IMG/VR virus record: IMGVR_UViG_3300025112_000036
Location: 1-44,063 of that record
Length of the DNA: 44,063 nucleotides
Reading direction: 5' to 3' (one strand)
DNA from: a virus
Under the pieces are notes generated by a model. That model ran no database searches, was not told where the DNA came from, and worked only from the letters and a program-made list of their open reading frames with translations. The translations under genes were made by a program, and so were the position numbers. This document shows, one piece after another, positions 4,401 through 14,024 of this stretch. Positions within the stretch are counted from its first letter, which is position 1; each line of letters begins with the position of its first letter.

Positions 4401-6101
4401 CTACCCTTTTGCATCTCCCCAGTTGTCCCCCTCTTCAATGTCGATCTCGACGGGCACACGCATGGGGAACGGGTTCTCCATGAGCTCCGTGATGCGACGC
4501 TTCGCTGGGATGGCGTAGTCGTCATCGTCAGGCACCTCGAAGATGAGCTCGTCGTGTACCTGCAGCAGCATCCGCACGCCCAGCTCTCGCAGCTCTTCGT
4601 CCGCCTCGCACCGCAGCATCGCCTCGTTGGTGATGTCTGCTGCCGAGCCCTGAATGCGTGCGTTGGGGGCTTGCCGCTCCGCCTGCTTCATCAGCCCACG
4701 CTCGGAGGACACGATGTCAGGCAGCCGTCGAGGATGGCCAATGAGGGTGTAGACCGCGAGTTCTTGTCGGCATTGATGCTTCGTGTCCTCGATGAACTCC
4801 CCGACGGCAGGGTAGATGTCGTTCAAGTAGTTCTTGATGAGCTTGTCGGCTTCCGGACACCAGTCGCTCGACTTGCCGTTCTTGAACGTCCGCTTCACGA
4901 TGGGCAGGCCAAGCTGCATCCCCAGCTTCAGCGCACCAATACCGTAGATGATGCCGAAGCCGGTGCTCTTGAGCTCCCCACGCTTTGCGGCCAGCAAGGC
5001 CTGCTCAGGAGTCGGATTGGCCGCGGCCTTGGCTGCCTTCACCTCGTCGTAGGTGAGCCCGGCAGGGATGCCCGGAACGCCTCGCTCGGACGCCAGCACG
5101 ACCGTCTGGCAATGAAGGTCCAGCCCCTTGTTGATGGCATCGATCATGCCCTGGTCACAGCTGAAATGGGCCATGATGCGCATCTCGAGCTGGCAGTTGT
5201 GAGACAGAAATCCTTCGCAGATGAAGGTCTTGGTGCTGGTCTGAATCGCCACCACCTCCCCGTCTTCGAGCCGCTCGATCTTGGTGACGCGAACTACGGG
5301 AGTGTGCGCCGACCATGTCCTCTTGCCATCCCACAAGATGTGGGCCTTTTCCAGCAATCGTGCAGGGCGGAACATTCCAATGGCCCGCAGACCTCCCTTG
5401 TTTCCGTAGAAGTCCAGCTGCTGCACATCATCCTTCTTTCGCAGACGACGTCGGACCTCCAGCTCCGGGAACTTTGTCAGGGAGGATTCGATCTGCCGCA
5501 AGCACGCATTCGGCCTCTGAGCCATGCTCACTTTTCCGCTTCTTGTGGCGCGGCCTTCCCCGTCGAGGATCCCCGAGAGGTAGCCTGCATCCCATCCCTG
5601 GGCGGTGTCCCATGGCTCTGCGAAGAACCCGATGCGGTCCCCCAGTTCGAGCTCGTCGGTGCGGACCCAGGAACGCCGCCGACGCTTCCATGTCTCTCCA
5701 GAGCCCCCAACTACCCACTGATGGTCGCCGGAGCAGATCAGCTCGGCTCCGTTGTCCATGGTGACCTTGAACCGCGGCTTGGTGACCCGCTTGCACCCCT
5801 CGACGACAGAGCTCTTCAGCTTTGCCCGCGAGAGCTTCTCATCGAAGCCGATGAGGCGATCCCCTTCCTGGACCTCACCGGCGGGGACCCATCGAAGGTC
5901 TTCCGTCAGCAGCCTCATCGCGGAGTCAACGCAGTAGTCCGCCACGATGAGGCGCATCGGGAAGTCGTCCGGCAGGTCCGGCCCTTCTACGTCCCGCAGG
6001 TGCTCCATGCACAGCATGGGATCGACATCGCCAAAGAGACCAGCCACGAAGAGCTGACGAATCCGCTTGCCCCACACCGGATCCTTGGCCGGGATGTTTT
6101 G
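4401..6101 (-). CDS. polA: DNA polymerase I family, C-terminal exon with motif A intein
   Basis: This is the polymerase domain downstream of the group I intron. Its first codon, CAA at 6099-6101, joins the upstream exon ...PNL to give PNLQNIP, the conserved family-A motif. Motif A is split by an intein: VADY is followed by the intein, and C-QLEMR resumes after it. Spliced motif A is DYCQLEMR, equivalent to DYSQIELR of E. coli Pol I. The O-helix (KRGELKSTGFGIIYG) keeps R, K and F at the 4-residue spacing of E. coli R754/K758/F762. Motif C is QVHDELIF near the end. The frame remains open to 6173, but that part lies in the intron. After all splicing the whole polymerase would be about 833 residues. 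Two Asp and one Glu needed for metal binding are present. Confidence 0.9.
   Translation of the reverse strand, partial: QNIPAKDPVWGKRIRQLFVAGLFGDVDPMLCMEHLRDVEGPDLPDDFPMRLIVADYCVDSAMRLLTEDLRWVPAGEVQEGDRLIGFDEKLSRAKLKSSVVEGCKRVTKPRFKVTMDNGAELICSGDHQWVVGGSGETWKRRRRSWVRTDELELGDRIGFFAEPWDTAQGWDAGYLSGILDGEGRATRSGKVSMAQRPNACLRQIESSLTKFPELEVRRRLRKKDDVQQLDFYGNKGGLRAIGMFRPARLLEKAHILWDGKRTWSAHTPVVRVTKIERLEDGEVVAIQTSTKTFICEGFLSHNCQLEMRIMAHFSCDQGMIDAINKGLDLHCQTVVLASERGVPGIPAGLTYDEVKAAKAAANPTPEQALLAAKRGELKSTGFGIIYGIGALKLGMQLGLPIVKRTFKNGKSSDWCPEADKLIKNYLNDIYPAVGEFIEDTKHQCRQELAVYTLIGHPRRLPDIVSSERGLMKQAERQAPNARIQGSAADITNEAMLRCEADEELRELGVRMLLQVHDELIFEVPDDDDYAIPAKRRITELMENPFPMRVPVEIDIEEGDNWGDAKG
5196..5933 (-). 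mobile_element. Contiguous intein in DNA polymerase motif A
   Basis: 246 residues between VADY and CQLEMR. It starts with Cys (CVDSAMRLL), has a splicing block B with the conserved His (CSGDHQW), and ends FICEGFLSHN just before the +1 Cys of the extein. A GYLSGILDGEG segment in the middle is a LAGLIDADG-type endonuclease motif; only one clear copy is visible, so the endonuclease may be reduced. Removing it restores DYCQLEMR. The insertion separates the two acidic residues of motif A, so the unspliced polymerase should be inactive. Confidence 0.92.
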
Positions 6102-7015
6102 CCTTGATGTTACGGACCGCCCGTTTCCGGCGGTCCTCTCTCGGTTTCCCGAGAGAGCAGACCATATCACCACGTCTTTTGACGTGCCCCGCGCTTCGGC
6201 CCCACTTAGGGCCTACTCGCTTGCGCGATGGTCGTTGGACCTTCACCACGTAGGTGTCTTGTACAGCAGCGCAGAAGGAGCAATCTTTCTGGCCATTGTC
6301 AAGATCTGAACAGCAATAGGCTTAGGCACAATCCAGACCTTGTTCCTCTCGGAAGCACGGCTGTTGTTCTTTGCCACTCGCCCAGCAGACGCAGTACCGA
6401 AGCGGTCACGGGCCCAGTCCAGGACGAAGTCCGGGTCAGAGCTCAGTTCTGGGCCCAGCGAGATGCTGACCCGCAGGCTTCCGCCATCGTTGCGGCGGAC
6501 AGTACATCCGTCGTCCAGGAACCACATTCCCAGCCCCAGGTCTGAGAGACCAGACAGTGCCTCAAAGCAGTCGAGCTGCTCATGGGCGTCAGTGAAGTCG
6601 GGGTGGACAAGCGAGGTCGCAGTCCAGATGGGCTTGGCATTGGCGTAGGTGCTGTCCTTCTTCCGGTTCCTCACATTGACTGAGCCGCGCAAAGAAGCAG
6701 GGAGCAGGTGCTCTTGCTTCCAGCGGACCCAGTCTTCGCAGATAGAGGACCAGATGATCTTGCTGTTCTTGCACTCCGGGTGCCGCCAAAAGTGTCCGTC
6801 GCCGAGACGGGCATTGGTGATGGCTTCCGAGAGATCTACACAGGTGCTTGGCTGCTGATTGCCCATTTCTTCACCCTCTAACAGGGTGTATATCCCTTGT
6901 GGGATGTTCATCCAAGCTCTTTTCGGCCCATCGCGCTTGCCGTTTCCAGCTACGCTGTGGGGGCTTGGCTTTAGGGGGTTCCAGCAGTTCACGGGGTTTT
7001 ACAACCTCCAGATCA
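6102..7015 (-). ncRNA. Group I self-splicing intron in the polymerase gene
   Basis: The 914-base insertion lies between codons CTT (Leu) and CAA (Gln) of the PNL|QNIP motif. The exon end CAACCTT pairs with GAGGTTG in the first 20 bases of the intron. This gives a 7-bp P1 whose last pair is the conserved U-G wobble at the 5' splice site. The last intron base is G. Near the 3' end are R-like (GTCCAACGACCATC) and S-like (GATATGGTC) elements whose GACCAT/ATGGTC arms form P7. Two P9-type hairpins with GAAA-type loops follow (CTCTCTCGG/CCGAGAGAG and GGACCGCC/GGGCGGTCC). A P4-like CTGCTGGAACCCCCTAAAGC lies near the 5' end. A LAGLIDADG endonuclease gene fills the middle. Confidence 0.9.
6243..6866 (-). 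CDS. LAGLIDADG homing endonuclease inside the group I intron
   Basis: 207 residues from the ATG at 6864-6866, which follows a GAGGGTGA Shine-Dalgarno-like run. The frame is open further upstream to 6992, but that part overlaps the intron core. Two half-motifs are seen: ARLGDGHFW near the N-terminus and GLGMWFLDDGC in the middle, as in the LAGLIDADG family with a WxxDDG second motif. The protein would cut intronless alleles of the polymerase gene and spread the intron. The stop at 6243-6245 lies immediately before the P7 element, so the gene fits between the 5' and 3' halves of the ribozyme core without breaking them. The frame appears intact. Confidence 0.85.
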   Translation of the reverse strand: MGNQQPSTCVDLSEAITNARLGDGHFWRHPECKNSKIIWSSICEDWVRWKQEHLLPASLRGSVNVRNRKKDSTYANAKPIWTATSLVHPDFTDAHEQLDCFEALSGLSDLGLGMWFLDDGCTVRRNDGGSLRVSISLGPELSSDPDFVLDWARDRFGTASAGRVAKNNSRASERNKVWIVPKPIAVQILTMARKIAPSALLYKTPTW

Positions 7016-7150
7016 AAGGTTGGGGCTGGCCGAGTTGTGGTGGACCAGGCCCTGCGCCACGTACGACGCGTCCTCTTCTACCGTCAGGTCCCAGACCTGA
7101 CGGGTTCCTACGGGCTTGATGGTCGCAATGCGGCCGGGAACAAGTCTCAT
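7016..7150 (-). CDS. Split-intein C fragment plus first six residues of the C-extein
   Basis: This exon starts with ATG at 7148-7150, overlapping the TGA of the upstream polymerase fragment (ATGA). It codes for a 39-residue IntC (starting MRLVPGRIATIKPV, with the VWDLTVEEDASYV strand and ending GLVHHN) followed by SASPNL, the start of the C-extein. The frame then runs into the group I intron and resumes at 6101 with QNIP. The IntC length and the terminal HHN plus Ser+1 match natural split inteins such as DnaE or gp41-type. AAGGAGG lies four bases upstream of the ATG. Splicing to the N half gives TWRLA-SASPNLQNIP, equivalent to TGRLSSxxPNLQNIP of family-A polymerases with no residue missing or extra. 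Confidence 0.92.
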
Positions 7151-8958
7151 TCTTCCTCCTTGGCGATTCGAAGAACCTCATCGCCCTCTGTGAGTTCGCT
7201 CAAGTGCTTCCAACCCGACGGGGTCAGGAAGCGGTGCTCCATCGTGCAGATGACGCTCTCCCCAGTAGCGAGAGTCACCTCGAACATCTCCTCCTCCCCC
7301 TTCGGGAAGCAGGCCAGAATCCTACGCTGACGAAGCTCGTGAGTCAGGATGGCCGTGGTGCTGTCCAGATGCTCAGGGAGATCCCGAATAGGGAATGTCC
7401 CTGCACTGGTCTCCAAGAGCGTTCCGCCATCCACGCAGGCCAGCCGCCAGGTGCGGGCTCCAATGGACTTCAGCTGAGTGTGGATGCGGCCCCGACGGTC
7501 GGCCCACTTGGGTAGCGCCTCCATGTAGGTGCCGTTCAGCTTGTCGTACTGCCGGAACCGAAGGACCAGCTCCGCCAGCTCGTTGCCCTTGCCTGCAAAG
7601 GTCTCGAGGGTGGCTTTGTCCGTGGAGGGCATCTTGATGCCGCTGGCACCCCCAGACGTCAGCTTTCTGGGCGGGTCGCCGAAGGGGTCGACCCACTCTC
7701 CGTTCCGGTCCTTGGTGAAGAAGACCTCTCGCAGCTGCTTGGGGCTGCCGACGTTGAACTCAAGGCTTCCAGTGACCTTCACGACCTTCCGCGCGACGTC
7801 CTGGAGGTACTTACGCATGTCGACGCTGTATGCGCGGGCACGCTCGGCATCGAAGGCGAAGCCCCGCCGCTCCATGTTCCAGAGGGTCCGGATGAAGGGG
7901 ATCCGCTTTTCCTCAGAGTGGTCGAAGAGGGTGAGGGGTTCCTCGCCCTCCATGACGCCCTCCGTGACCATCTCCATCTCGTCGTCGTCGAGCTCGTGCC
8001 GCAGCCAATCCACCAGAGTGTACGAGGCCCAGGCATCCAGCGAGGCGTAGTCGGACACCCGCTCTCGGAGCTCCTCGAGGGGGTCCCCATCCAGGGAGAG
8101 CTTCTCGAGCATCCGGTCCCATAGGAGCCAGTGGGCTTCCTCGATGAGCTTCTTGTCTTCCATGACGGAAGCCCAGGCAGGCCGCTCCTTGTAGTTAGGG
8201 AGCTCCGGGCCTCCGAGGAACTGCACGAAGTCAGAGACGTACCCCTGGCGGCCTGCGGTCTTAGAGGCAAGCCCCAGGCTTCGGGCCACCGCGAGGAGAG
8301 GGCGAGCCTTGAGGATGCAGCCTGCCTTGATGGCCAGGTCGACCTTCTTCAGCATTTTCATCAGGAGCGGGTCTTCTGACTCCACGATCTTCAAGCGGAT
8401 GCTCATGCGCAGGGCCCATGCCTGGGCTGCCTCCACCTCGCCCTCGTAGTCGTGGAGCTCGAGAATGTCATGGACCTCGCACATGGTCCGAACCTCGTCG
8501 TCCACCTTGCCGATGTCCCCGAACACCTGCTTGAACGGCGTCATCCGTAGTCCCAGGTGATCTGCTGCACAGCCCTTCAGGCCATGGCTCATTCGGTTCT
8601 CGTCGTACAGGAAGTCCTGGTCCATCGAGTCCGGGATCGGGCCGCGGATGATGATGCCGTGGTTCGCCGCCATGTGCATGTCGTACTTGGCGTTGGTCAT
8701 CCGCTTTTCGACCTTGGGATCGGTCAGGAGAGGGACGAACACGGGCAGCAGCCGCAGCGGGGCACAGATGCGTGCGCCCGTGTTTGCTACGGAGAAGAAC
8801 CGGATGCGGTCGCGCACCAGGTCAAGCCCAGTTGTCTCAGTGTCGAAACCGATGCCGGTCTCGTAGGCGGTCTCGTAGAAGTACTCGGCCCATCCCTCCG
8901 CCTCGTCCATGTCGTGGACGTAGGTGGGGAAGGGCGTCCTCACAATGGAAAAGGCCAT
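7147..8958 (-). CDS. polA: DNA polymerase I family, N-terminal part fused to split-intein N fragment
   Basis: 603 residues. Residues 1-507 are the polymerase N-part. A DEDD 3'-5' exonuclease has Exo I GFDTETTGLD (D39, E41), Exo II TNAKYDMHM and Exo III VSDYASLDAW. The thumb and the start of the palm follow, up to RIHTQLKSIGARTWRLA. Residues 508-603 are a 96-residue IntN beginning CVDGGTLLE, with block B ICTMEHRF, and stopping at EEE-TGA. The protein is inactive as a polymerase until trans-spliced with the C part. GGAG lies six bases upstream of the start ATG. A perfect 10-bp hairpin and a CATAAG motif lie in the 82-base gap before it. No 5'-3' exonuclease domain is present, as in other phage family-A polymerases. 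Confidence 0.92.
   Translation of the reverse strand: MAFSIVRTPFPTYVHDMDEAEGWAEYFYETAYETGIGFDTETTGLDLVRDRIRFFSVANTGARICAPLRLLPVFVPLLTDPKVEKRMTNAKYDMHMAANHGIIIRGPIPDSMDQDFLYDENRMSHGLKGCAADHLGLRMTPFKQVFGDIGKVDDEVRTMCEVHDILELHDYEGEVEAAQAWALRMSIRLKIVESEDPLLMKMLKKVDLAIKAGCILKARPLLAVARSLGLASKTAGRQGYVSDFVQFLGGPELPNYKERPAWASVMEDKKLIEEAHWLLWDRMLEKLSLDGDPLEELRERVSDYASLDAWASYTLVDWLRHELDDDEMEMVTEGVMEGEEPLTLFDHSEEKRIPFIRTLWNMERRGFAFDAERARAYSVDMRKYLQDVARKVVKVTGSLEFNVGSPKQLREVFFTKDRNGEWVDPFGDPPRKLTSGGASGIKMPSTDKATLETFAGKGNELAELVLRFRQYDKLNGTYMEALPKWADRRGRIHTQLKSIGARTWRLACVDGGTLLETSAGTFPIRDLPEHLDSTTAILTHELRQRRILACFPKGEEEMFEVTLATGESVICTMEHRFLTPSGWKHLSELTEGDEVLRIAKEEE
7150..7437 (-). mobile_element. Split-intein N fragment (IntN)
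   Basis: This is the 96-codon C-terminal part of the polymerase N-fragment. It has a Cys1 start (CVDGGTLLETSAG), block B TMEHRFLTPSGW, and ends LRIAKEEE. Size and end point match the N halves of known natural split inteins (about 90-100 residues). No endonuclease domain is present. Confidence 0.9.
7155..7161 (-). promoter_or_regulatory. Ribosome binding site for the split-intein C fragment
   Basis: AAGGAGG is placed four bases before the IntC ATG and lies within the last codons of IntN (Lys-Glu-Glu). It supports true re-initiation at the C fragment rather than a sequencing frameshift in a single intein. Confidence 0.85.
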
Positions 8959-9040: not shown

Positions 9041-10357
9041 TTACCGGCTGCGCTTCCGACGGCCCGGACGGCGACGCCGGGGCTCCTCGCTCACGCTGTC
9101 GTCGTCCTCGACCTCTTCCGCCTTCTTGCCGTAGGTCTTGTACTTCGAGGACCGCCCACCACCCGTCTTCTTCGCGCTACCGAAGGGGTTGTGGCAGTTC
9201 AGCTTGGACGCGATGAGGCCGTTGTCCATGGGGATGTGGACCCTCTCGAAGTCGAACTGTGCGGTGGCCAGCTTCTCGATGCTGAACTCATCGCTGAACT
9301 TCCAGTTGCCGTCGTCGTCCAGGGCAGGGCTATCGCCCTCCCACTCGAGCAGCGTGGCCCCGTTGGCGAGCTCGAAGTCCGTCAGCGGAATGACCTCGTC
9401 GAAGATGAGGTCCGTGCTGGTGCCCTCGCCCCGCCTGCGGATCTTGACCACGACGTCGAAGGGCGTCAGGGCCTGCGGGTCGTCGCAGTTGTCGCAGATG
9501 GGCTCGACCACCGGGAAGCCCTGGTGCCCGCACTCTTCGCACCGCTGACGCTCCGCGGAGAACTCGGCGATCTCCGCCTCGTCCATCCCGTCATCGTCAT
9601 CATCGTCGCCCTCGACGTGGGCCAGGGGCTCCTCGCACTCCTCGCACAGGAACACGATGGGCGTCAGGTCACCGCCGCACATGCACATCTTGGAGGAGGC
9701 ATCCTCGATGCTGGCCAGCTGGTCCCGGAACTTCGGACCCAGCTCCATGTACTTCTTCGACATCATGCGGACTTCGCCCTTCTCGAGGAGGTCGTCGATG
9801 TCCGCCTCGATCCGCTTCTTGGCCTTCGGCTTGGTGACCACTTCCCAGTTCATGATGGGGTCGCCACGCTTGATGTTCTCACCGAAGTCCTTCTCGTAGT
9901 ACTTCTTCTTCCCATCCCGGTCGGTCGCGTGGACGCGCTCGTACAGGGCGAGGTGAAGCATGTTGAACGAGTAGGTCCTCTTCAGCTTGTAGCCCATCCG
10001 CTTGTCGCCCTCCTCCATCCGGAGGCAGGGCAGGCAGTCCGCGTCGTCCTCGGAGCCTCCGACGGCCACAGCCGCGTCCAGCGCACAGCGCGTGGAGAAG
10101 AAGGAGCCGGGCCCCTTCGAGGCCACACGCACCGCGTGCGTGCCGCACGTGTGGTACGGAGCGGACAGCGGGTTGCCGTTCGAGTCCAGGTCCTCAGGGT
10201 TGTCGTAGTCAGCCCGGGTCAGGAGGATGTACGTGCCGGCAGCCTTCGGGATGTTGAAACGATCCCTCCAGTTGCCGCGCCAGCCGCCCTTGCCCTTGTT
10301 CTGAGACTTCTTGCTGCGAAGCACACTCCGGCGCAAACCGGTAGCCTTACGTGCCAT
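9041..10357 (-). CDS. Zinc-ribbon replication-associated protein, possible ssDNA-binding protein
   Basis: 438 residues, not firmly recognised. It has a basic N-terminus (KATGLRRSVLRSKKSQNKGKGGWRGNW), a Cys-containing central domain (HTCGTH, CLPCLRM), and two further CxxC sets (CMCGGD...CEECEEP and CEECGHQ...CDNCDD) around an acidic DDDDDD linker. The C-terminus is very basic (RRRRPGRRKRSR). The position between primase and DNA polymerase fits a single-stranded DNA-binding or primase-accessory role, but no OB-fold signature was verified by eye. The start ATG has GGAGA eight bases upstream and overlaps the primase end by 11 bases. An in-frame extension to 10429 lacks support. Confidence 0.75.
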   Translation of the reverse strand: MARKATGLRRSVLRSKKSQNKGKGGWRGNWRDRFNIPKAAGTYILLTRADYDNPEDLDSNGNPLSAPYHTCGTHAVRVASKGPGSFFSTRCALDAAVAVGGSEDDADCLPCLRMEEGDKRMGYKLKRTYSFNMLHLALYERVHATDRDGKKKYYEKDFGENIKRGDPIMNWEVVTKPKAKKRIEADIDDLLEKGEVRMMSKKYMELGPKFRDQLASIEDASSKMCMCGGDLTPIVFLCEECEEPLAHVEGDDDDDDGMDEAEIAEFSAERQRCEECGHQGFPVVEPICDNCDDPQALTPFDVVVKIRRRGEGTSTDLIFDEVIPLTDFELANGATLLEWEGDSPALDDDGNWKFSDEFSIEKLATAQFDFERVHIPMDNGLIASKLNCHNPFGSAKKTGGGRSSKYKTYGKKAEEVEDDDSVSEEPRRRRPGRRKRSR

Positions 10358-11339
10358 TTGATCGTCTCCATTGAGTAGGAGTGAGTGGGTTGAGGATGGC
10401 TTCACGAACTTCATCGAACGTGAGGTCATCCGGCTGCAGATCGAACCTGAACGGGTACCGCATGATGTAGGTGTCCAGGCCCTTCATTCTATAACTCGCC
10501 TTCCTTGTTCCGATGCGTCCAGGAGCATCATCATCCAGGCAGAGGACAGTTTTTGTCCCCAGCCGCTGAAGAAATCGCAACTGGACATTGCTCAGGCTTG
10601 TCCCCATCAAGGCGACGGTGAGGGGAAACCCAGCCTGGACCAACCACAGGGCCGCTTTGAAGCCCTCGACGACGCAGACCGTCTGCCTCTGTGAGGAGCC
10701 ATAGACCTGTGCGTAGACTTGTTCCCAGCGCCACATGTAGTCGTGGTTGCTGAAGGAGTAGCCCTTGAAGCCCAGGTCCCGCAGCTCCTGCTCGTAGACC
10801 ACGTACTTTCCTGGGCCATCCCCGTGCACTGGCTTCCCGACGATGCCGGCAAGAACGCCGTGCATGTCCCTGACGGGGTACACGATGCGCTCGAGCTTTG
10901 GGTCGAACCCGACATCATTGTCCTGAAGGACTGCCTCAGAAAAGCCCTGTTCTAACAAGTCCACCGGAGCGTACTCGTAGAGTCCCAGCAGTCTTTCGGG
11001 GAGCGGGTAGGCGGCGTGGAACACTCCCTCCTGCTGGGCGGACAGCTTCTTTCTTGGTGCATCCTTCAGGAGTGGACGCAGCCTCTCCATCGTTCTGTCG
11101 ACGAAGGAAGCCGGCTTATTCAGCTTCTTCAGGAGCTGGGCAAGTCCTCCCCCTCCGCAGCCAGCAAAGCAATGCCACTGTCCCGTGGCCTCGTTGAAGC
11201 TGAAGGAGGGCTTGGACCTTCCCGGCTGCTCCCCGTGGATGGGACAGAACCCCAGCCAGTTGCTTCCGGCCCCTCGTCGGAGTCCGGGGACCAGCCGGTC
11301 TACTGCTGTGATGACCGCGCCGCGCTTAGCGGCCCCCAC
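10347..11339 (-). CDS. DnaG-type DNA primase (zinc-binding and Toprim domains)
   Basis: 330 residues. It would synthesise RNA primers on the lagging strand with the DnaB-type helicase encoded just upstream. The zinc-binding domain is CPIHGE...CFAGCGGGG (C32, H35, C57, C61). The Toprim domain shows VCVVEGFKAA (catalytic Glu) and VLCLDDDAPGR (DxD). It is shorter than bacterial DnaG and lacks a recognisable helicase-interacting C-terminal domain. The start is GTG at 11337-11339, directly after the helicase stop; no clear Shine-Dalgarno site is visible, so coupling to helicase translation is likely. Confidence 0.88.
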   Translation of the reverse strand: MGAAKRGAVITAVDRLVPGLRRGAGSNWLGFCPIHGEQPGRSKPSFSFNEATGQWHCFAGCGGGGLAQLLKKLNKPASFVDRTMERLRPLLKDAPRKKLSAQQEGVFHAAYPLPERLLGLYEYAPVDLLEQGFSEAVLQDNDVGFDPKLERIVYPVRDMHGVLAGIVGKPVHGDGPGKYVVYEQELRDLGFKGYSFSNHDYMWRWEQVYAQVYGSSQRQTVCVVEGFKAALWLVQAGFPLTVALMGTSLSNVQLRFLQRLGTKTVLCLDDDAPGRIGTRKASYRMKGLDTYIMRYPFRFDLQPDDLTFDEVREAILNPLTPTQWRRSNGT

Positions 11340-14024
11340 CTACGGACGCAGGATGGAAGTCTTCCGCCGCTTCCGCCGCTTCCCGGTCTTGCCGAAGCTG
11401 CCCTTCCGCTTCTTAACCTCTGCCTTGGCCTTGGCCTTCACGTCGCTCTCCTCCTCGTAGTCCTTTGATTCCTTCAGGAACGAATCCACGTTCACGCTGT
11501 TCTGAAGCAGCGTGAAATCGCAGCCGGGCCAGGCGTTGACCACGAAGGGGTTCAGGACAGAGTCCCGGACCCCTGGGAAGGTCAGCATCAGCTTGGGCTT
11601 CCCGGTGGAGTGGTTCTTGGCCTTGAAGATGCGGGCCAACATGTCGCAGTCCTGGCCGATGGCATCTGCGAAGGCGACCTCATCCGTGTCGTCTCCCTTG
11701 GTCTTGCCGGCAGACCTGTTGGCCTGGGTGGTCCCGATGATGGGGATGTCCAGGTACTGGGCTGCGTCCTTGATGTCGCTCGAGATGTTGGAGATGGTCT
11801 TCCACCCACGGTCCCGAAGTCCAGTGCGGCCGTCCCGCATCAGATAGAAGCCGTCGATCAGCAGCAGGTCTGCCTTGAACTTCTCGGCCTCTGCCACCAG
11901 CGTGTCGACAGTCGCCCCCTTCTTGCCCCCCATCTCACGGTCGGAGATGAAGCTCATCGCAGCCCGCTGGCCGTCTTCCTGAGAATCCTTCTCCCAGTCC
12001 TCCAGGCTCTCCATGAGCTCGAAGAAGTCCTCACGCTCATCGTCGTTGAGGCCCGCTGTCTTCAGCTTCTCGTAGTCAATGCCGGTGATGAGGGAGGCGA
12101 CCCGTCGGATCATCTGCTTCTTCGACATCTCCTTCGAGTAGCAGAGCACCCGACGGTTGTGCATCGAGTAGGCATGGACGCAGCAGTGGAGGGCCAGCCA
12201 GGTGTTGTGGACCGCAAAGCCCTCAACGACGAAGTTGGGATCCTGGCCGTCCTGGATGCAGATGTCGTAGCAGTCATGGCGGCCGACGGGGGTGATCTCC
12301 CTGATTCGATCCCACAGCACGTCTTGCTCTGCCACGATGCGAAGGGGCTCAGAGTCCCACTTGTTCGCCATCTTCATCAGAAGGGCTCGGCTGATCTTGC
12401 CCGAGCGTCGGAACAGCTTGCTCCGATCCAGGTAGGACTGGCCCATCTTTGGCCACTCCTTCCCTTCCTTCTCCCGCAGGATGAGCTGCATGAGTCCTTC
12501 GGAGTAGGGGACCCCGTCGACATTCCGCTTCGTGAACCGCTCCTCAGTCAGCTGGAAGAAGGCTTCCCGCTTGTGGGCGCACTCCACGTAGCCGGCCAGC
12601 TGGGCACACAGCTTCTGGTGCTGATCGAGCCCGGTCACCGTCACGATCCACTGACCCTTGCCAGCGTTCTCCGACCAGTAGGGGCTGCCCACTACTCCCA
12701 GACGGGACAACAAGTGCTTCACGCCATCGGCGAGTACCTTGCTTGCCGTGCACCAGGACACGGTGTACGGCTTCTTGGCCCAGACGTTGCCGTCGGTGTC
12801 CAAGAGTCCTGCCAGGAAAGCGCAGATAGCCTCACGTCCTGCGGTCAGGATGCCCTCGGGAACGTCCTTGTCCTCCGCCTTCTTGCCATGCATCCCAGCC
12901 TTTCGCAGGTAGGTCAGCAGCGGGTTGTCCGGGCGGCCAGGAGCCGTGATCCGGTACTCGCCCGGACGGTGTGCCTCGCGCATCTCACACTCGAACCGGC
13001 CAACCCGATGAGACAGCATGTCCACGACGTCCTGATCGTGGTTCGAGAACTGGACCCCGTTCCGCGCGTAGTTCCCGTCCCCAACCAGGGTGCCCAGGAT
13101 CCAAGCCAGCTCCGTGCTGACGCCAGTCCCGTCCCATGCTGGAGTGTTCCTCGTAGTGGCGACCCAGTCCCCCACCTCGAGATCGCAGATGCGCTCGAAG
13201 GAGCCCTCGAAGGAGCCCTCAGGAACCATGAAGTAGTGCTTGTCGCCTGTCTCCACGGTGTAGCCAGACTCTGTCACGACCCGGACGCAGTCCTTCTCAC
13301 CGCTGTAGACCCTCTTGGCCTTGGCCCACCGCAGCTTGCCAGTGGCCTCCGTGTAGGAAGGGACTTCGCACTCCTCAGGGAGTTCCTCGATGGGGACCAG
13401 CTTTCCGCTCCTGGTCATGATCTTCTGCCCGGCCACAACGCACTTCATCATCTTCGGGCGCGCATAGAAGACGAGCCACTCCTGGTCCTGCATCCCACCA
13501 GTGGACCTGTTCATTGGGCCCCAAGGCCACGGGATGCCCGTGATGCCTCCTGACTGCTCCATGGCCTCATACTCAGCCCGCAAGTCAGCAGCAGCAGACG
13601 AGATGAGCGTCTGGCTACTACGACTTGAAGAGACGCTGAGGTCTCGCAAGGCAGGCAGGAGACCCTGAAGGACAAGGTCGGGAGACTCCCCGCTGTCCAG
13701 GAGGTCATCCATCTCTGCTGTGATCTCTCGGATGCCCGCAGACACGTTGTTGTCCACGACCTCATCGATGAGCGCGGCGAGGGTGTCCCGGCTGGGGCAG
13801 AAGTCGAACTCCGGGAAAGTCCTCCGCACCCGCTCGTAGCTGGGAACCACTCCTCCAGGCTCGGTCTTGGTTCCAGGCTTGAGGACCTCAGCATGGAGCC
13901 AGGCGAAGAGCTCCCTTGCTTCTTCGCCCTGGAAGAGCTGGGAGGTGACGCCGCGGTGGCGGACCTCTTGAAACTGCCCGCGATCGATGATGTTGCTCAG
14001 CAGCTGCAGCTCTACATTGGCCAT
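11340..14024 (-). CDS. dnaB: DnaB-type replicative helicase carrying an intein
   Basis: 894 residues as encoded, about 481 after intein removal. The N-terminal helical domain (VELQLLSNIIDRGQF...) matches DnaB. The RecA-like core has Walker B LLLIDGFYLM, a SKEMSKKQMIRRV region like the DnaB H2 segment, and GTTQANRSAGK, the sensor/H3 region. The Walker A loop is interrupted by the intein. Joined, it reads ARPKMMKT, lacking the usual glycines but keeping Lys-Thr, a form found in some phage helicases. The C-terminus is very basic (KKRKGSFGKTGKRRKRRK). GAGGAGG lies nine bases upstream of the start. It unwinds DNA at the fork and works with the primase and polymerase encoded next to it. Confidence 0.9.
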   Translation of the reverse strand: MANVELQLLSNIIDRGQFQEVRHRGVTSQLFQGEEARELFAWLHAEVLKPGTKTEPGGVVPSYERVRRTFPEFDFCPSRDTLAALIDEVVDNNVSAGIREITAEMDDLLDSGESPDLVLQGLLPALRDLSVSSSRSSQTLISSAAADLRAEYEAMEQSGGITGIPWPWGPMNRSTGGMQDQEWLVFYARPKMMKCVVAGQKIMTRSGKLVPIEELPEECEVPSYTEATGKLRWAKAKRVYSGEKDCVRVVTESGYTVETGDKHYFMVPEGSFEGSFERICDLEVGDWVATTRNTPAWDGTGVSTELAWILGTLVGDGNYARNGVQFSNHDQDVVDMLSHRVGRFECEMREAHRPGEYRITAPGRPDNPLLTYLRKAGMHGKKAEDKDVPEGILTAGREAICAFLAGLLDTDGNVWAKKPYTVSWCTASKVLADGVKHLLSRLGVVGSPYWSENAGKGQWIVTVTGLDQHQKLCAQLAGYVECAHKREAFFQLTEERFTKRNVDGVPYSEGLMQLILREKEGKEWPKMGQSYLDRSKLFRRSGKISRALLMKMANKWDSEPLRIVAEQDVLWDRIREITPVGRHDCYDICIQDGQDPNFVVEGFAVHNTWLALHCCVHAYSMHNRRVLCYSKEMSKKQMIRRVASLITGIDYEKLKTAGLNDDEREDFFELMESLEDWEKDSQEDGQRAAMSFISDREMGGKKGATVDTLVAEAEKFKADLLLIDGFYLMRDGRTGLRDRGWKTISNISSDIKDAAQYLDIPIIGTTQANRSAGKTKGDDTDEVAFADAIGQDCDMLARIFKAKNHSTGKPKLMLTFPGVRDSVLNPFVVNAWPGCDFTLLQNSVNVDSFLKESKDYEEESDVKAKAKAEVKKRKGSFGKTGKRRKRRKTSILRP
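12204..13442 (-). mobile_element. Intein with LAGLIDADG endonuclease in the helicase P-loop
   Basis: 413 residues (195-607 of the precursor). It starts with Cys (CVVAGQKIMTRSGK), has block B ETGDKHYF, and ends VVEGFAVHN before the +1 Thr. Two endonuclease motifs, AWILGTLVGDGN and AFLAGLLDTDGN, are complete, so the homing endonuclease could be active. Insertion in the DnaB P-loop is a site used repeatedly by inteins. Confidence 0.93.

What the first reader, a model, noticed from the sequence alone, without database searches (positions are those of the whole stretch)
7016..8958. Naturally split intein in a phage DNA polymerase, with overlapping stop/start and its own ribosome site
The polymerase N-part ends in a 96-residue IntN (Cys1, TMEHRF block) and stops at TGA. 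The IntC ATG overlaps that stop (ATGA) and has AAGGAGG four bases upstream. The 39-residue IntC ends HHN followed by Ser. Joining the two halves gives TWRLA-SASPNLQNIP, an exact-length match to the family-A motif TGRLSSxxPNLQNIP. So one polymerase is made as two polypeptides and joined in trans. Known split inteins (DnaE of cyanobacteria, phage gp41-type) show that such halves can be active. Whether family-A polymerase split inteins at this site are already described I cannot tell.
Basis: partly seen in the sequence, partly recalled or inferred. Interest (0 to 1): 0.92.

Follow-up and report, generated by a model that had tools for sequence, protein, structure and literature searches.

The report
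Split intein in phage family-A polymerase
A virus of bacteria appears to make its DNA-copying enzyme as two separate proteins that are stitched together by a split intein, while a self-splicing RNA intron and a second intein interrupt the same short stretch of the gene; each part is of a known kind, but this split in this polymerase and the crowding are unusual.

Summary
Both halves match HINT inteins. The TGRLSS motif is a recurrent phage intein site: many IMG/VR PolA loci carry contiguous inteins there. Intein-less alleles in phages of the same lineage (TWRLASRNPNL uninterrupted) show the exact empty site. Only the window has this clean split; one distant PolA locus (L089) is also interrupted by a stop, but is ambiguous.

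The finding omits that the C-half is itself interrupted: 18 nt after the intein site lies a 914-nt group I intron with a LAGLIDADG ORF (shared with the intein-less relatives, with compensatory base changes), and 168 coding nt further a 246-aa intein splits motif A. One polymerase therefore needs RNA splicing, trans protein splicing and cis protein splicing.

A one-base assembly error is the main rival; random indels rarely give this stop/start/ribosome-site arrangement (49 of 52,452 simulated; 2 with a site this strong). Splicing itself is untested. Family-B phage polymerase split inteins are published; I found no family-A case.

The parts
7438..8958 (-). N-extein of PolA, 507 aa (3'-5' exonuclease domain and N part of polymerase domain, ends TWRLA)
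7147..7437 (-). IntN, 96 aa (Cys1, block B TMEH), with stop TGA 7149-7147
7155..7161 (-). AAGGAGG ribosome-site-like motif, inside the IntN coding sequence, 4 bases before the IntC ATG
7034..7150 (-). IntC, 39 aa, ATG at 7150-7148 overlapping the IntN stop (ATGA), ends HHN
7016..7033 (-). PolA extein SASPNL (Ser+1 first), 6 codons
6102..7015 (-). group I intron, 914 nt, between Leu and Gln of PNL|QNIP
6243..6866 (-). intron ORF, 207 aa, LAGLIDADG_2-type homing endonuclease
5934..6101 (-). PolA extein QNIPAKDP...VADY, 56 codons
5196..5933 (-). second intein, 246 aa, in cis, inside motif A (DY|CQLE)
4401..5195 (-). PolA C-terminal extein with motifs B and C, 264 aa and stop

Best explanation
The phage's family-A polymerase is encoded as two translationally coupled ORFs. 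Ribosomes that finish the 603-aa N-protein (exonuclease + N part of the polymerase + IntN) at UGA restart on the overlapping AUG, helped by AAGGAGG, and make the C-protein. That protein is complete (611 aa) only after a group I intron has removed itself from the mRNA; unspliced mRNA gives a 45-aa stub. IntN and IntC then associate into a HINT domain and splice in trans (Cys1, block B Thr/His, penultimate His, Asn, Ser+1), and a second intein excises in cis from motif A, giving one 833-aa polymerase. The split arose within a contiguous endonuclease-less mini-intein of a family that repeatedly invades this PolA site. Shown by sequence: the parts, their junctions, the empty sites and the intron's covariation. 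Inferred: reinitiation, trans-splicing and enzyme activity.
For: Anatomy. HINT membership; the contiguous homologue L013 (47% identical to the joined halves) is predicted at pLDDT 93.7 and matches solved inteins including split gp41-1 and NrdJ-1 at TM about 0.84-0.86. Contiguous inteins occupy the same motif in many PolA loci; where an endonuclease is present it sits between the same IntN and IntC segments. Native empty site: L127/L128 read TWRLASRNPNL and VADYRNLEMR uninterrupted but keep the intron. The joined extein aligns without gaps at the three junctions. Polymerase and exonuclease motif residues are kept and differences from L127 are concentrated at third codon positions. Indel simulation: a stop and ATG within 4 nt with a ribosome-site match of >=6 nt arises in 49 of 52,452 random indels, with >=7 nt in 2. 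Group I intron.
Against: No second sequence with the same split junction was found, and nearly all homologues at the site are contiguous, so a one-base assembly error cannot be excluded; reads are not available. The phage's other gene starts rarely have strong ribosome sites, so the motif may be a by-product of Lys-Glu codons. IntC is charge-neutral rather than basic. No trans-splicing or RNA splicing was tested.
Confidence: 0.82

Rival explanations
1. Assembly or sequencing error: the real gene has a contiguous cis-splicing mini-intein, and a one-base error in the contig makes it look split.
For: All well-read homologues at the site except L089 are in one frame; joined length of 135 aa is like the contiguous mini-inteins of 130-134 aa; no second copy of the junction is held.
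Against: A random indel in this phage's genes gives a stop/ATG overlap with a >=6-nt ribosome-site match in 0.09% of cases and >=7 nt in 0.004%. AAGGAGG followed by ATG after 4-9 nt occurs only three times in the window on both strands. The break lies exactly at the natural split/endonuclease loop, although an error anywhere in that linker would also lie there.
Confidence: 0.12
2. Real frame change but a dead end: the polymerase gene is decaying, and the halves no longer splice.
For: Three insertions lie within 62 codons; no activity data.
Against: All splicing residues, polymerase and exonuclease motifs and the long frames after RNA splicing (611 aa) are intact.
Confidence: 0.04
3. One polypeptide made by programmed ribosomal frameshifting across the overlap, followed by cis-splicing.
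For: A ribosome-site-like motif sits just before the frame change, as in some bacterial frameshift signals (established knowledge).
Against: No slippery heptamer is seen at the overlap (CCAAGGAGGAAGAATGA), and an ATG stands exactly at the start of the IntC frame.
Confidence: 0.02

Closest known systems
Split inteins of phage family-B polymerases: Aes123 PolB1 (PMC11923092) and MIJ3 PolB with HNH gene (PMC6892783)
   Same: Phage DNA polymerase cut by a split intein.
   Different: Family B polymerase and another insertion site; Aes123 PolB1 is cysteine-less; MIJ3 has an endonuclease gene between the halves, absent here.
gp41-1, NrdJ-1 and similar phage-type split inteins ('fractured genes', Dassa et al. 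2009; not held in the library, from memory)
   Same: HINT split intein with a short IntC; gp41-1 matches the profile and the modelled homologue.
   Different: Other host genes and, from memory, an endonuclease gene between the halves in the fractured-gene arrangement; here the two ORFs overlap by four bases.
Contiguous PolA inteins at TGRLSS: Microcystis phage Mvi-JY20 (L010), L013, L018, L020, L025 and others
   Same: Homologous inteins at the same or a neighbouring codon boundary of the same motif.
   Different: One reading frame; many have an endonuclease domain.
Group I introns in phage PolA genes: SPO1 (between E. coli Asn675 and Leu676, PMC2814812), Bastille and relatives (PMC11878797), ProddE
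   Same: Group I intron in a family-A polymerase gene; SPO1's site is about one codon from this one by my own alignment.
   Different: Here the ORF is of LAGLIDADG type and the intron follows a split-intein junction by 18 nt.

Membership tests
Class-1 intein (HINT) | Cys/Ser at position 1, block B TxxH, C-terminal His-Asn, Cys/Ser/Thr at +1 | tested here: met
   Cys1, TMEH, HHN, Ser+1
Class-1 intein (HINT) | HINT fold | tested here: met
   Sequence: Pfam match below its gathering score, PDB profile match E=4e-15. Fold: tested on the contiguous homologue L013, not on the window halves themselves.
Naturally split intein | IntN and IntC in separate ORFs, each fused to an extein half, the second with its own start | tested here: met
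   depends on the assembly being right
Naturally split intein | break in the endonuclease-insertion loop | tested here: met
Naturally split intein | trans-splicing activity | not testable with these tools
   needs expression
Fractured-gene arrangement | endonuclease gene between IntN and IntC | tested here: not met
   ORFs overlap by 4 nt
Family-A DNA polymerase | conserved motifs in the joined exteins | tested here: met
Group I intron | P1 with U.G at the 5' splice site, conserved core, terminal G | tested here: met
   U.G in P1 and intron-final G; two partial RF00028 matches of 15 bits, below the gathering score of 50
Group I intron | helices kept by compensatory changes in relatives | tested here: met
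   14 of 24 predicted pairs in the 3' core, 4 sequences
Group I intron | self-splicing | not testable with these tools
   needs an in vitro splicing assay or RT-PCR

The most novel reading that the evidence does not exclude
A natural split intein created by a minimal change inside a family-A polymerase mini-intein (overlapping ORFs, reinitiation), whose endonuclease-less halves spread by hitchhiking on the homing of the LAGLIDADG group I intron inserted 18 nt away, so that one enzyme depends on RNA self-splicing, trans and cis protein splicing within 62 codons.
Probability: 0.25. Interest if true: 0.75.

Novelty: new variant of a known kind. Interest (0 to 1): 0.6.

Why it matters
It extends natural split inteins from family-B phage polymerases (and other phage genes) to family A, at the motif with the catalytic Arg. 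With intein-less alleles from the same lineage and contiguous homologues in hand, it makes testable how split inteins arise (one small change in a linker plus reinitiation) and whether an endonuclease-less intein can ride on a neighbouring intron's homing. It is also a candidate Cys1/Ser+1 split-intein pair (96 + 39 aa) for protein ligation.

Tried and rejected
The junction 26-mer in viral contigs gave none. The genome search draws no relatives for virus records. Rfam at the gathering threshold found nothing, so the intron rests on weak core matches, DNA similarity to other phage sequences and covariation. The one genome-contig scan gave no split PolA intein. L089 was considered as a second split PolA intein: its IntN ends at a stop, IntC would need a GTG start, and the other-frame ORF between them has no standard start codon that I could see and no Pfam match, so it may be a decayed contiguous intein; it is not counted as proof. 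The intein tree does not resolve the window's nearest kin. Nine paper searches found no family-A split intein; Dassa et al. 2009 is not held.

Full report
What is in the sequence. The window is a 44-kb virus record of IMG/VR. On the minus strand, ORF 8958-7147 encodes 603 aa: a 507-residue N-extein with a 3'-5' exonuclease domain and the start of a family-A polymerase domain, then a 96-residue IntN. The stop TGA (7149-7147) overlaps the ATG of the next ORF (7150-7148), with AAGGAGG four bases upstream. That ORF opens with a 39-residue IntC ending HHN and Ser+1, then SASPNL, then meets TGA at once.

What the finding leaves out. QNIP, the expected continuation, begins at 6101. Between 7016 and 6101 lie 914 nt with the marks of a group I intron: P1 pairing AACCUU with GGAGGUU and a U.G at the splice site, weak RF00028 core matches, DNA similarity of core segments to other phage sequences, one of them inside an annotated intron-containing DNA polymerase gene (Desulfovibrio phage ProddE), and an internal 207-aa LAGLIDADG ORF. 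The relatives L127 and L128 (identical in the stretch held) carry the same intron at the same place (70% identical DNA), and an alignment of four 3' cores has compensatory changes at 14 of 24 predicted pairs. Further on, a 246-aa intein interrupts motif A between DY and CQLE. With the intron removed, the second ORF is a single 611-aa frame.

Is the split real. The TGRLSS motif is a recurrent intein site in phage PolA genes. Contiguous homologues occur at three neighbouring codon boundaries (RL|SS, RLS|S, RLSS|S), with or without an endonuclease; the window is of the RLS|S type. Phages of the same lineage have the uninterrupted site TWRLASRNPNL, so the insertion point is known exactly. The break falls in the loop where the homologues carry their endonucleases. 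Simulated one-base indels in this phage's own genes give a stop and ATG within 4 nt with a ribosome-site match of six or more bases in 49 of 52,452 cases, and of seven or more in 2. An assembly error is therefore unlikely but not excluded, because no second copy of the junction is held and reads are not available.

Is it an intein that can work. Cys1, block B Thr and His, penultimate His, Asn and Ser+1 are all there. A profile of the joined halves and two homologues finds solved inteins, best a DnaB intein at 4e-15, and also gp41-1. The contiguous homologue L013 (47% identical) is modelled at pLDDT 93.7 and matches HINT inteins, including the split gp41-1, NrdJ-1 and Aes123 PolB1. The window's own halves were not modelled. 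The polymerase aligns without gaps at every junction, keeps its motif residues, and differs from L127 mostly at third codon positions.

Mechanism. The best reading is translational coupling, RNA splicing of the C-half mRNA, trans-splicing of IntN with IntC, and cis-splicing of the second intein, giving an 833-aa polymerase. The parts are shown; the reactions are inferred. The relatives share the intron and match the intein-bearing DnaB-like gene along its length, but lack both PolA inteins, which were therefore gained in this branch or lost in the relatives. That the endonuclease-less split intein is carried along by homing of the intron 18 nt away is a hypothesis only.

Novelty. Split inteins in phage family-B polymerases are published (PMC6892783, PMC11923092), as are group I introns in phage polymerase genes (PMC2814812, PMC11878797) and phages dense with introns and inteins (PMC7886860). 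Nine searches of the open-access library found no family-A split intein and no such combination; subscription papers are not covered. I rate it a new variant of a known kind.

Noticed in passing
window 6102-7015 (-): Group I intron with LAGLIDADG ORF between PNL and QNIP of polA, about one codon from the SPO1 intron site.
   Followed up: yes
window 5196-5933 (-): A second, cis intein (246 aa) inside polymerase motif A (DY|CQLE); absent from the lineage relatives L127/L128.
   Followed up: partly
window 12204-13442 (-): 413-aa intein with LAGLIDADG_3 domain in the DnaB-like helicase gene; the relatives L130/L132 match along nearly the whole gene (55%), so they seem to share it.
   Followed up: partly
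L089:2392-3120: PolA intein halves separated by a stop and an other-frame ORF; the polymerase is further broken downstream, near an HNH ORF.
   Followed up: partly
L046:5572-9061: Apparent split intein in a putative terminase gene: the IntN ORF stops at 6252 and the IntC ORF starts in another frame, with another HINT-like insertion later in the same gene.
   Followed up: no
window 9041-10429 (-): 462-aa protein upstream of polA without Pfam or PHROG match; an apparent counterpart lies upstream of polA in L127 (read by eye).
   Followed up: no
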